Positions 26,302 to 29,777 of a stretch of 64,000 nucleotides of DNA are shown piece after piece; position 1 is the first letter of the stretch; each line of letters starts with the position of its first letter. The notes beneath the pieces are model-generated. The model was not told where the DNA came from, did not search any database, and saw nothing but the letters and a program-made list of their open reading frames with translations. The translations under genes and the position numbers were made by a program. The stretch covers positions 124,001-188,000 of the forward strand of contig NC_009440.1 of the NCBI RefSeq assembly GCF_000016605.1. Direction: 5' to 3'. This DNA comes from Metallosphaera sedula DSM 5348 (GTDB lineage Archaea; Thermoproteota; Thermoprotei_A; Sulfolobales; Sulfolobaceae).

Positions 26302-26988
26302 GTGAAAATCACATTTCTAGGTACAGGGGCAGGAAGTACCGCAGGATCGAGAAGGTTTAAGGCAGGAATACTAGTTGAGGGGAAGGAAGGGAAGATTGTG
26401 TTGGATTTTGGGTCAGGTATTAACATGAGATTGGAGGACATGCGCGTAGTTCCTGACGCCGTCTTCATAACCCATTTGCACATTGACCATTTCTCTGGAA
26501 TATTTGATCATCTCGTGAGAAGACAAATCGATAGGGTACCAGAACTCAAGGTATTCTCTCCGCCTGGATTTTCAGAGGTACTTAGAGTCTACCAAAAGAC
26601 TAATAACATTTCAGCTCAGGTTATGGAAGACCACCTCCCCTCAGGAAAAATAGGTGATCTAGAGGTCTATTCCTTGGAAGCCTGTCATAAGATATACGCC
26701 GTGTCCTATATCATCACAGACGGAAAAAGGAGAGTACTTTACTCAGGCGATACCCTGGAGCCCTGTGATACAGTGCTAAGAGAGATATCAGGGGTTGACC
26801 TGGTTATCCATGAAGCCAGTTGCTTAGAGAACTGTAAGGAATGGGGACATACCTCTGTTAAGGAGGCGATTAACCTGTTTAGGAACCCTGTCCTAACTCA
26901 CGTCCCAGCACAGCTCGAGGGTGAGGTTGAGAATTCCGTGAAGGGCAAGGCCTTACTCGCTAAGGACGGGTTGAGTTTGGATGTGTAG
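26302..26988 (+). CDS. metallo-beta-lactamase fold hydrolase (RNase Z-like)
   Basis: A 228-residue MBL-fold protein: FLGTGAGST at the start, FITHLHIDHFSG (HxHxDH metal motif), YSGDTLEPCD (metal-bridging Asp), and a later VLTHV. It looks like the RNase Z/arylsulfatase-type branch, but lacks the length of true tRNase Z. Target unknown. GTG start, 48 bases after the kinase gene; it overlaps the amidotransferase gene by 8 bases. Confidence 0.8.
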   Translation: MKITFLGTGAGSTAGSRRFKAGILVEGKEGKIVLDFGSGINMRLEDMRVVPDAVFITHLHIDHFSGIFDHLVRRQIDRVPELKVFSPPGFSEVLRVYQKTNNISAQVMEDHLPSGKIGDLEVYSLEACHKIYAVSYIITDGKRRVLYSGDTLEPCDTVLREISGVDLVIHEASCLENCKEWGHTSVKEAINLFRNPVLTHVPAQLEGEVENSVKGKALLAKDGLSLDV

Positions 26989-27685
26989 ATTTGTCGCCTT
27001 CGCGGGAAAGGGGGAAATTGACGGCGAAGTTATAGGAGCTCTCATGAAATCTTCAAGGAAAGACGTTCTTTCCAGTAACTCGCATCCAGACGGATGGGGA
27101 TACGCCATCTATGTACTGGATGGTGAATGGAGTAGATTTCAATATGCGTCTGCGAGACCTATGTACGCTGATGAAAACGTCTCAATTCTATATACGATTA
27201 GGGGAGAAAGGATAGTCGGGATAATTCACGCTAGGAAGACTTTGAAAAGGTTTCTCACGGGGGTTTCTCACGCTCATCCATACCACATAAGGGCAGGCCC
27301 CTATGACCTCTTCTTCGCCCACAACGGTTCAGTCTCCAGATCCGCGTTCAAAGACTCCGATTTGCCATATACTGATAGCTATATGATACTCAGGGAAATA
27401 GCTAAGGAGGTCTCCTCCATGGATCCAGCTACGGCGTATTTGAGAGTGATGAGTAGATTAAAGGGAAATGCCACCAGTTTAAATTCAGCTCTTCTCTCTT
27501 ATGCTGAGGGGACAGGGCCCGAATTATTTGCGTACTACTATTATAATAGAAATAACATGAGAGAGATGGAGGAGTATTACAAGATGTATTCTCACGATTC
27601 CTACGTTTATTCTGCCACGGTCAACTACTATCTAGGGGGGAGAGGGAAAGAATTGCCCCTTGATAGGGTATACAGGATCAACTAG
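26981..27685 (+). CDS. class II glutamine amidotransferase-like protein
   Basis: A 234-residue Ntn-type amidohydrolase. The catalytic Cys is residue 2 (MCRFVAFAG) after Met removal; HPDGWGYAIYV, IIHARKT and FAHNGSV are the substrate and oxyanion motifs of YafJ/EgtC-like stand-alone glutaminases. No synthetase domain follows, so either a partner is encoded elsewhere or the substrate is a gamma-glutamyl compound. It is the last gene of the thiD-led group. Confidence 0.85.
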   Translation: MCRFVAFAGKGEIDGEVIGALMKSSRKDVLSSNSHPDGWGYAIYVLDGEWSRFQYASARPMYADENVSILYTIRGERIVGIIHARKTLKRFLTGVSHAHPYHIRAGPYDLFFAHNGSVSRSAFKDSDLPYTDSYMILREIAKEVSSMDPATAYLRVMSRLKGNATSLNSALLSYAEGTGPELFAYYYYNRNNMREMEEYYKMYSHDSYVYSATVNYYLGGRGKELPLDRVYRIN

Positions 27686-27802
27686 GTTCAATTCCCAGCT
27701 AGTTTAATACATGGCAGGGCAAGAGTTTATACCTTGAGACTAATCTTGGGTTTTTACAATCAAATAATTCAGATATTCTTTCTAGAAGATCTATGGCTTA
27801 AG

Positions 27803-27833
27803 TTCATAAACATGTGGAAGAATAATTATTCTT
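27803..27833 (+). promoter_or_regulatory. promoter and 16-base palindrome abutting the TnpB-like gene
   Basis: TTCATAAAC at about 27803-27811 can serve as TATA box about 26 bases before the ATG. Between it and the ATG lies AAGAATAATTATTCTT (27818-27833), a perfect palindrome that ends on the base before the start codon. A protein bound there would sit on the transcription start, so it is a good candidate operator. The rest of the gap 27686-27802 holds nothing recognised. Confidence 0.5.
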
Positions 27834-28664
27834 ATGAAAGAACATTTGGTTGAGGCCAAAATAATTGATTACGGTAAGCTAAAAACTATACACAGCGACA
27901 TAGTTTACTACGTGTCCTACTATAAAACGTTAGAGAAATCAGGAGTAAAGACCAAGCCCTCTCCCCCTCCCAGCCTGAAGGACATGAACGTAATTTATAC
28001 GAAGCCAAGGATAGGCCCCCTGAAATTAATCGGAGAAGGACCAGTTTACAAGCTAGATAAGGTAGGGGCAATTGTGAGTGTGGATTTTCCAGGAACTCCG
28101 CTATATGCCATAGTGGACTTTGAGGATAGCATTAGGGTATATCTTGCGTATCCAGTGGAGGACCCTATTGTGGGAATAGATCTAGGAATAAGACACCTGT
28201 TCACAGTGGTTGCAGTTACCAAGAACGGAAAGATATACAAATCAAAGTACATAGGTAACGGTAGTATAATGGAGACCTTTACTAAATACATGAGCGAGAC
28301 GCAGGGACTCTCCTATGTCAGGGAGATAAGGGAAAAGGTCAGGATATCTTTAAGGGAGTTGATGGATTTCCTTGTCGAGTTAAGCCCTAAGATTGTCGCG
28401 CTGGAGGATTTGAGATTATATGACGCGAAGATAGGCAGAGGTCTCAAACTGATCGAAGATGAACTGGAGAGGGAATTGTTGGAGAAAGGGATAAGATTCA
28501 GGAGATTGGATCCTAGAAACACCTCGAAGGTTTGTTCCCAGTGCGGGTACAAGAAAGGTGAAGTTATGGGATCCCTGTTCGTGTGTCCAGCGTGCGGATA
28601 TAAGGTGGACAGGGACTTCAACGCTGCATATAACCTCGCACTGAAGTGTTACTATACCTGTTAA
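27834..28664 (+). CDS. compact TnpB-like RuvC/zinc-finger protein, probably domesticated
   Basis: A 276-residue protein whose C-terminal two thirds match the RuvC nuclease of IS200/IS605 TnpB, ancestor of Cas12. RuvC-I VGIDLGIRHLF (D116), RuvC-II IVALEDLRL (E191), the DPRNTSKVCSQCGYKK motif, a C4 zinc finger (C234, C237, C251, C254) and RuvC-III KVDRDFNAAYNLAL (D259/D261) are all intact. But it is far shorter than TnpB (350-450): the ~110-residue N-terminus lacks the usual REC region and only residues ~55-108 resemble the strand-rich WED part. No tnpA and no IS-type hairpins or repeats flank it. It is single in this window and sits in ordinary metabolic genes. Either an exapted RNA-guided or DNA-processing nuclease or a decayed one kept open. 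Confidence 0.82.
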   Translation: MKEHLVEAKIIDYGKLKTIHSDIVYYVSYYKTLEKSGVKTKPSPPPSLKDMNVIYTKPRIGPLKLIGEGPVYKLDKVGAIVSVDFPGTPLYAIVDFEDSIRVYLAYPVEDPIVGIDLGIRHLFTVVAVTKNGKIYKSKYIGNGSIMETFTKYMSETQGLSYVREIREKVRISLRELMDFLVELSPKIVALEDLRLYDAKIGRGLKLIEDELERELLEKGIRFRRLDPRNTSKVCSQCGYKKGEVMGSLFVCPACGYKVDRDFNAAYNLALKCYYTC

Positions 28665-28721: not shown

Positions 28722-29777
28722 ATGAATTATAAGAACAGGGTACAAAGGGTAAAGGAGCGTCTAAAGGGAAAGGCGGACTACCTTGTTCTGGGCCCTGGAA
28801 GTAACATGTTTTACCTCACGGGTTTCACGGAGGAACCAATGGAGAGACCGATCCTCCTGATACTCGGAGAACAGGATTACATGATAGCCCCAAAGATGTA
28901 TGAACAACAGTTATCAGGTCTCAGCCTAGAAGTAAGAACTTACGTGGACGGAGAAGATCCCTATTCTCTTTTACAGATCAAGAAAGGTTCTTCTCTTGCT
29001 ATCGACGACCAACTTTGGTCAATGTTTCTAGTTAGTATACTTAATAGGTTCTCCCCATCGGACCTAATCCTGGTTTCACCACTCATAGCTCCAATAAGAT
29101 CAGTTAAGGATGAGGAGGAGATAGGGATAATGAAGGAAGGGTTGAAAATTGCAGAGCAATCCTTCATGGAATTTATTTCGAGGGTTAAGGAGGGGGAGAC
29201 GGAATGTCGCTTGTCGCAGATATTGGAGGGGATTTTCAGGGAGAATGGAGTAACGCCATCCTTCTCTACAATCCTCACCTCAGGTCCAAACACGGCAATG
29301 CCACACCTGAGATGCACTGAGAGGAAAGTGCGTAAAGGAGAACCTGTGATTGTGGATTTTGGTATCAAATACCATGGGTATTCCACAGATACCACAAGGG
29401 TCGTTACTATTGGGAAGCCATCACAGGAGGTGACAAAAATTTGGGAAATAGTTCACGAGGCTGTGGTAAAGGCTGAGGAGTCCACCTATGGATTGTCGGG
29501 GATGAAGATAGACCAAAGGGCTAGAGGCGTCATAGAAGGTAGGGGCTACGGTAAATACTTCATTCATAGAACCGGACATGGAATTGGAATAGACGTTCAC
29601 GAGTTCCCCTACATCTCTCCCGACAACGGCGATGTGATACCTAGGAACTCCGTTTTTACCATAGAACCTGGGATCTACATACCCGAGAAATTTGGGATTA
29701 GAATCGAGGACATGGTCATTATGCGAGACAGGGCGGAGGTTCTCTCTTCCTTGCCTAAGGAGATCTATCAAGTCTAG
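28722..29777 (+). CDS. pepQ: Xaa-Pro dipeptidase/aminopeptidase (M24)
   Basis: A 351-residue prolidase-type metallopeptidase. The N-terminal creatinase-like domain (about 1-115) precedes the pita-bread catalytic domain, whose five metal ligands are visible in VIVDFGIKYHGYSTDTTRV (two Asp), HRTGHGIGIDVHEFP (His), TIEPGIYIP (Glu) and RIEDMVIM (Glu). It cleaves dipeptides with C-terminal proline, or N-terminal X-Pro bonds. TATA-like GTTTTATC at about 28693. Its end overlaps the convergent aminotransferase by 4 bases. Confidence 0.9.
   Translation: MNYKNRVQRVKERLKGKADYLVLGPGSNMFYLTGFTEEPMERPILLILGEQDYMIAPKMYEQQLSGLSLEVRTYVDGEDPYSLLQIKKGSSLAIDDQLWSMFLVSILNRFSPSDLILVSPLIAPIRSVKDEEEIGIMKEGLKIAEQSFMEFISRVKEGETECRLSQILEGIFRENGVTPSFSTILTSGPNTAMPHLRCTERKVRKGEPVIVDFGIKYHGYSTDTTRVVTIGKPSQEVTKIWEIVHEAVVKAEESTYGLSGMKIDQRARGVIEGRGYGKYFIHRTGHGIGIDVHEFPYISPDNGDVIPRNSVFTIEPGIYIPEKFGIRIEDMVIMRDRAEVLSSLPKEIYQV

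What the first reader, a model, noticed from the sequence alone, without database searches (positions are those of the whole stretch)
27834..28664. Minimal, apparently domesticated TnpB-type RuvC protein
Seen: all three RuvC acidic sites (D116, E191, D259/D261) and a complete C4 zinc finger in a 276-residue protein, about 100 residues shorter than TnpB, with no REC-like N-terminus. There is no tnpA, no terminal hairpin and no target duplication in the flanks. Known: TnpB is an RNA-guided nuclease of IS200/IS605 elements and has been exapted repeatedly (Cas12, TldR repressors). Inferred: a stand-alone host gene with conserved catalytic residues and its own regulated promoter could be a new compact RNA-guided or RNA-independent nuclease.
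Basis: partly seen in the sequence, partly recalled or inferred. Interest (0 to 1): 0.75.

Follow-up and report, generated by a model that had tools for sequence, protein, structure and literature searches.

The report
Domesticated, guide-less TnpB-derived nuclease of Sulfolobaceae
A family of heat- and acid-loving archaea turned one transposon nuclease into a permanent single-copy gene that kept its cutting site but lost most of the parts its relatives use to hold a guide RNA, so it is probably a new, RNA-independent host nuclease.

Summary
ORF 27834-28664 encodes a 276-aa TnpB-type RuvC protein with the full D116/E191/D261 triad and a C4 zinc finger. It is present once, intact and full length, in 30 of 31 Sulfolobaceae genomes. 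No full-length relative was found elsewhere in the class or in the phylum sample, and none in the viral contigs scanned. It forms one clade (100/99) and is mostly in conserved synteny. Mobile TnpBs in the same genomes are multicopy and often decayed.

First, the N-terminus is not unrelated: folded alone, it matches the TnpB WED domain best, with REC cut from 104 to 46 residues and one helix. This removes the TAM-reading part. [quoted passage not shown]

Best reading: a TnpB domesticated in or near the Sulfolobaceae ancestor that abandoned RNA guidance but kept catalysis, now probably a structure-specific host nuclease. Domestication is shown by comparative genomics. Loss of guidance is strongly suggested. 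Substrate and pathway are inferred. No held paper describes it.

The parts
27834..28664 (+). domesticated TnpB-derived RuvC protein gene, 276 aa
27837..27869 (+). WED strand 1 (residues 2-12)
   Evidence: AF2 models; matches ISDra2 TnpB WED
27870..28007 (+). vestigial REC (residues 13-58): one helix 16-35, then a conserved PPP linker; 46 aa against 104 aa in ISDra2 TnpB
   Evidence: domain limits of TnpB from PMC10097598
28008..28157 (+). rest of the WED OB-like barrel (residues 59-108)
28158..28661 (+). RuvC domain with inserted TNB zinc finger (residues 109-276)
   Evidence: VIA Z 15.8 to AsCas12f, 12.7 to TnpB 8h1j, about 14 to bacterial RuvC
28179..28181 (+). catalytic D116
   Evidence: invariant in 30 orthologues
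28404..28406 (+). catalytic E191
   Evidence: invariant
28614..28616 (+). catalytic D261
   Evidence: invariant
28254..28391 (+). RuvC alpha1/alpha2 region (residues 141-186), omega-RNA-binding in TnpB, here shortened and without net positive charge
   Evidence: role in TnpB from PMC10097598
28533..28595 (+). C4 zinc finger (C234, C237, C251, C254)
28647..28661 (+). C-terminal tail CYYTC, nearly invariant; replaces the variable TnpB C-terminal domain
27783..27812 (+). upstream block conserved in Metallosphaera, possible promoter
   Evidence: function inferred
26981..27685 (+). class II amidotransferase-like gene, conserved upstream neighbour
28722..29777 (+). pepQ-like peptidase gene, downstream neighbour in Metallosphaera

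Best explanation
The gene is a TnpB that was domesticated once, in or near the ancestor of the Sulfolobaceae, and has been inherited vertically since. During domestication it lost mobility and its TAM-reading REC domain (reduced to one helix). It also lost the basic RuvC helices that hold the omega-RNA, and the omega-RNA itself. It kept the WED OB-fold, the RuvC DED active site and the TNB zinc finger. It therefore most likely works as a small RNA-independent, metal-dependent nuclease: WED and zinc finger bind a nucleic acid of particular structure (a flap, branch, bubble or R-loop are candidates) and RuvC cuts it, in genome or RNA maintenance. Shown: single-copy orthology, purifying selection, intact triad, missing RNA-binding charge, no conserved 3' RNA. 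Shown by predicted structure only: WED plus short REC plus RuvC plus TNB architecture. Inferred: that it cuts, that it needs no guide, and its substrate and pathway.
For: Distribution: 30 of 31 Sulfolobaceae genomes have exactly one full-length orthologue without stops; in 229 genomes of the class and 398 drawn from the phylum, no full-length match lies outside this family. The exception is a 79%-complete assembly with different local gene order. Mobile TNB-domain copies per genome run from 2 to 70, and many TnpB copies carry stops. Synteny with pfkB, MBL and GATase2 across most genera. One clade at 100/99 with a branching order that looks host-like. dN against M. javensis 0.028, the lowest of seven local genes; dS saturated, ratio about 0.01. 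Triad and zinc ligands among the invariant columns. N-terminus folded alone (pLDDT 88): its 17 best structural matches are all TnpB or Cas12, first ISDra2 TnpB residues 2-178 with all 111 residues aligned (Z 6.3), which leaves about 66 residues of REC missing. RuvC matches Cas12f, TnpB and bacterial RuvC. Charge of the omega-RNA-binding helix region -5 to 0 against 0 to +21 in 86 TnpBs; whole-protein net charge +6 to +14 against +31 to +55 in near full-length Sulfolobales TnpBs. No 3' RNA: fourfold-site identity flat, about 0.15-0.42, with no rise at the 3' end; downstream DNA not conserved; in most orthologues outside Metallosphaera a convergent ORF ends -4 to +6 nt from the stop; no Rfam hit.
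Against: No biochemical, expression or genetic data. IscB and IsrB lack REC and are still RNA-guided through bulky RNAs (PMC10097598), so REC loss alone does not prove RNA independence, and a guide encoded elsewhere cannot be excluded. The protein is still mildly basic and keeps the WED fold, which could bind RNA. The N-terminal structural match has moderate Z (6.3). A conserved triad does not prove catalysis.
Confidence: 0.62

Rival explanations
1. A compact RNA-guided nuclease that uses a guide RNA encoded elsewhere in the genome (in trans), with the RNA doing the work of REC as in IscB/IsrB.
For: WED fold and complete RuvC/TNB kept; REC-less IscB/IsrB are RNA-guided (PMC10097598).
Against: The RuvC helix region that binds the omega-RNA in TnpB has no net positive charge in all 15 representatives; no conserved RNA at the gene; total net charge far below TnpBs.
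Confidence: 0.15
2. A nucleic-acid-binding regulator or structural protein in which the acids are kept for metal-dependent folding or binding and not for cutting (a TldR-like fate).
For: Domesticated TnpB regulators (TldR) exist, a phage-encoded example being in PMC13418256; a small conserved protein at the end of a metabolic gene row.
Against: To my knowledge TldRs lose the RuvC acids; here all three are invariant over 30 genomes down to about 38% identity.
Confidence: 0.13
3. An immobilised transposon remnant or selfish gene without host function, fixed by chance.
For: Clear descent from TnpB.
Against: dN/dS about 0.01, lowest dN of seven neighbouring genes; retained once and intact in 30 genomes while mobile copies decay; kept where synteny broke (L048, L050).
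Confidence: 0.02
4. A nuclease acting mainly on RNA (an RNase H-fold enzyme of RNA processing or decay).
For: RNase H/RuvC fold and OB-like WED; weak resemblance of the N-terminus to SmpB (Z 2.7).
Against: Relatives cut DNA (PMC8612924); the SmpB match is too weak to carry weight.
Confidence: 0.08

Closest known systems
TnpB of IS200/IS605 elements (ISDra2 TnpB; Sulfolobales copies)
   Same: WED fold, RuvC DED triad, C4 TNB zinc finger, common ancestry
   Different: REC reduced from 104 to 46 aa, omega-RNA-binding helix region without positive charge, no omega-RNA found, no C-terminal domain, no transposon, single copy, vertical
Cas12f (AsCas12f1, Cas12f2)
   Same: best structural and sequence match of the RuvC/TNB part: Z 15.8, 24% identity over 159 residues
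   Different: far smaller N-terminus; known Cas12f proteins work with guide RNA beside CRISPR, which was not tested in detail here
TldR (nuclease-dead TnpB repressors)
   Same: domesticated from TnpB
   Different: catalytic triad kept; REC and guide RNA apparently lost instead (the opposite trade-off; TldR features from general knowledge)
Bacterial RuvC resolvase
   Same: same fold, Z about 14 over 133-140 residues
   Different: only distant fold kinship; has WED and zinc finger, which RuvC lacks; Holliday-junction activity untested
IscB/IsrB
   Same: transposon RuvC proteins without a REC domain (PMC10097598)
   Different: belong to the Cas9 line and use a large omega-RNA; none seen here

Membership tests
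TnpB RNA-guided nuclease | RuvC DED triad | tested here: met
   D116, E191, D261 invariant in 30 orthologues
TnpB RNA-guided nuclease | C4 TNB zinc finger | tested here: met
   Pfam PF07282 E 1.7e-17; four Cys invariant
TnpB RNA-guided nuclease | WED domain | tested here: met
   N-terminus folded alone matches ISDra2 TnpB 2-178, Z 6.3, all 111 residues, 17 best matches all TnpB/Cas12
TnpB RNA-guided nuclease | four-helix REC domain with TAM-reading residues | tested here: not met
   46 residues with one helix in place of 104 residues with four
TnpB RNA-guided nuclease | basic omega-RNA-binding RuvC helices | tested here: not met
   net charge -5 to 0 against 0 to +21
[quoted passage not shown]
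   no conservation at the 3' end or downstream, convergent ORF within a few nt in many species; RNA-seq not available, so expression of an unconserved RNA is untested
TnpB RNA-guided nuclease | NCBIfam guided_TnpB curated cut-off | tested here: not met
   67 of 100 bits
IS200/IS605 mobile element | tnpA, terminal hairpins, multiple copies | tested here: not met
Cas12 (type V CRISPR effector) | adjacent CRISPR array or adaptation genes | not tested
   no dedicated array search; the neighbours identified are metabolic genes
TldR repressor | loss of RuvC catalytic residues | tested here: not met
   triad invariant
RuvC-type Holliday junction resolvase | junction cleavage as a dimer | not testable with these tools
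   fold similarity only

The most novel reading that the evidence does not exclude
A TnpB lineage that shed RNA guidance altogether and became an essential or near-essential RNA-independent structure-specific nuclease of an archaeal family, reversing the usual route in which RuvC nucleases become RNA-guided.
Probability: 0.35. Interest if true: 0.8.

Novelty: new variant of a known kind. Interest (0 to 1): 0.62.

Why it matters
Known TnpB exaptations mostly keep the guide RNA (Cas12, Fanzor) or keep the guide and lose catalysis (TldR). This family appears to show the opposite trade-off: catalysis kept, guidance lost. If confirmed it would be a natural minimal RuvC/WED/zinc-finger nuclease of about 275 residues, show what a TnpB does without RNA, and give a conserved gene of unknown role that can be tested genetically in Sulfolobus acidocaldarius and S. 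islandicus.

Tried and rejected
Hidden omega-RNA: tested by fourfold-site conservation, flank alignment, Rfam and convergent-gene spacing; none found. A roughly 1-kb apparent gap downstream in several genera looked like room for a non-coding RNA, but it is filled by a convergent ORF on the other strand. PADLOC 'Csx1' model PDLC01039 (E 1.6e-17) looked like a possible lead but hits ordinary 380-440-aa TnpBs across these genomes, so it is a generic TnpB model. Viral carriage: 48 viral relatives, all partial and none a full-length orthologue. Sister group: the closest row in the tree is a long-branch Heimdallarchaeota TnpB, support 97/75 and flagged as possible long-branch attraction, so the donor TnpB clade is unresolved. 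Literature: searches on TnpB domestication, Sulfolobales or locus tags gave no description of this gene; the PNAS 2023 TnpB diversity paper is not held and the essential-gene tables of S. islandicus could not be read. The locus tags searched were guesses, so their absence means little.

Full report
Observation. The window is position 124001-188000 of a single 2,191,517-bp contig. From memory that size fits Metallosphaera sedula DSM 5348, and the nearest named orthologue is M. javensis at 95% identity. That the family code f1 is Sulfolobaceae is inferred from the named loci. ORF 27834-28664 is real, single copy in its genome, and related to TnpB/Cas12f by its TNB zinc finger and RuvC motifs.

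Distribution. A protein search of 197 genomes of the order and a profile search of 229 genomes of the class found exactly one full-length, stop-free orthologue in 30 of the 31 genomes of the window's own family and none in any other family. A sample of 398 genomes of the phylum agrees. The one family member without it is 79% complete, in 40 contigs, and has another gene order around pfkB, so absence there is not informative. No viral contig carries it. Mobile TnpBs in the same genomes number up to dozens, often with stops.

Vertical inheritance and selection. In most genera the gene follows glycosyltransferase, thiD, pfkB, MBL and a class II amidotransferase in the same order and strand. Two lineages lost that context and kept the gene (L048 and L050). 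The 15 representatives form one clade in a RuvC tree of 103 rows (100/99), with the genera nested in an order that looks host-like (not tested against a species tree). Between the window and M. javensis dN is 0.028, lower than in six neighbouring genes (0.062-0.101); dS is saturated, so the ratio of about 0.01 is only indicative.

Anatomy. AlphaFold2 from eight orthologues gives pLDDT 85 for the whole protein, and 88 for residues 1-111 folded alone. Residues 109-276 are a RuvC domain closest to Cas12f (Z 15.8, 3.1 A over 159 residues), with TnpB (12.7) and bacterial RuvC (about 14) near. The N-terminus was folded and searched on its own. Its 17 best matches are all TnpB or Cas12, first ISDra2 TnpB residues 2-178 (Z 5.9-6.3, 106-111 residues aligned, about 3.8-4.1 A); the Z is moderate, but the ranking is unmixed and covers the whole domain. 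In ISDra2 TnpB the WED domain is residues 1-12 and 117-176, and REC (13-116, four helices) is inserted after strand 1 (PMC10097598). Here the same place holds residues 13-58 with one helix. TAM-reading residues essential in ISDra2 (Y52, K76, Q80) lie in the REC domain, most of which is missing here.

RNA-binding surface. In TnpB the omega-RNA scaffold is gripped by helices 1 and 2 of RuvC through conserved basic residues (PMC10097598). In the aligned region (window residues 141-186) the 15 family members have net charge -5 to 0, and 86 TnpBs have 0 to +21 with median +14; Sulfolobales TnpBs have +6 to +13. The low P-value printed there is not phylogenetically independent and I do not rely on it; the near-separation of the ranges is the point. 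Whole-protein net charge is +6 to +14 against +31 to +55 in near full-length Sulfolobales TnpBs.

No omega-RNA. Fourfold-site identity among six Metallosphaera is flat along the gene (0.15-0.42) and does not rise at the 3' end. The DNA after the stop is not conserved. In most orthologues outside Metallosphaera a convergent ORF ends from 4 nt inside to 6 nt beyond the stop, leaving no room for a conserved right-end RNA. Rfam finds nothing at threshold. By contrast, an ordinary S. acidocaldarius TnpB, Saci_1941, shows processing sites possibly linked to an omega-RNA (PMC12817955).

Mechanism. The retained parts (OB-fold, RuvC triad, zinc finger) are those that bind and cut nucleic acid. The lost parts are those that read a TAM, house the guide-target duplex and hold the guide RNA. 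The economical reading is an RNA-independent, probably structure-specific nuclease with a housekeeping role. Cutting, guide independence, substrate and pathway are inferences. The main caveat is that REC-less IscB/IsrB are RNA-guided through bulky RNAs, so a trans-encoded RNA remains possible (about 15%).

Membership and novelty. By descent it is a TnpB; by defining features of the RNA-guided nuclease it fails on REC, omega-RNA-binding helices, omega-RNA and the curated score, so it should not be filed as an RNA-guided TnpB. It is not a TldR, since the triad is intact. I found no paper describing it in the held library, but the main TnpB diversity paper was not held, so prior notice cannot be excluded.

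Noticed in passing
window 28647-28661: The protein ends in CYYTC; Y274 is invariant and C272, Y273 and C276 nearly invariant in 30 orthologues, although this part is variable and dispensable in TnpB. Could be a disulfide or second metal site; unexplained.
   Followed up: partly
window 27783-27812: Block TAGAAGATCTATGGCTTAAGTTCATAAAC upstream of the gene is conserved in several Metallosphaera species, including one (L009) with a different upstream gene; a possible promoter.
   Followed up: partly
L040, L041, L054, L049 just upstream of the gene: A small ORF of about 87-89 aa lies between the amidotransferase and this gene in Aramenus, genus g5 and Acd1, 20-85 nt upstream; the Aramenus sequence (first 60 aa) has no Pfam match; absent in Metallosphaera.
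   Followed up: no
L043, L044, L045, L051, L052, L053, L055 downstream of the gene: In several genera a convergent ORF of 328-359 aa, reminiscent of histone-deacetylase-like amidohydrolases by eye, ends at or near the stop of this gene.
   Followed up: partly
G119:C1:1310454-1311307 (L207, L209): The pfkB homologue is split into two overlapping ORFs, a possible frameshift or decayed gene.
   Followed up: no
PADLOC model PDLC01039: The model labelled 'Csx1 (found elsewhere)' matches ordinary TnpB genes in many archaea and some bacteria and seems misnamed.
   Followed up: yes
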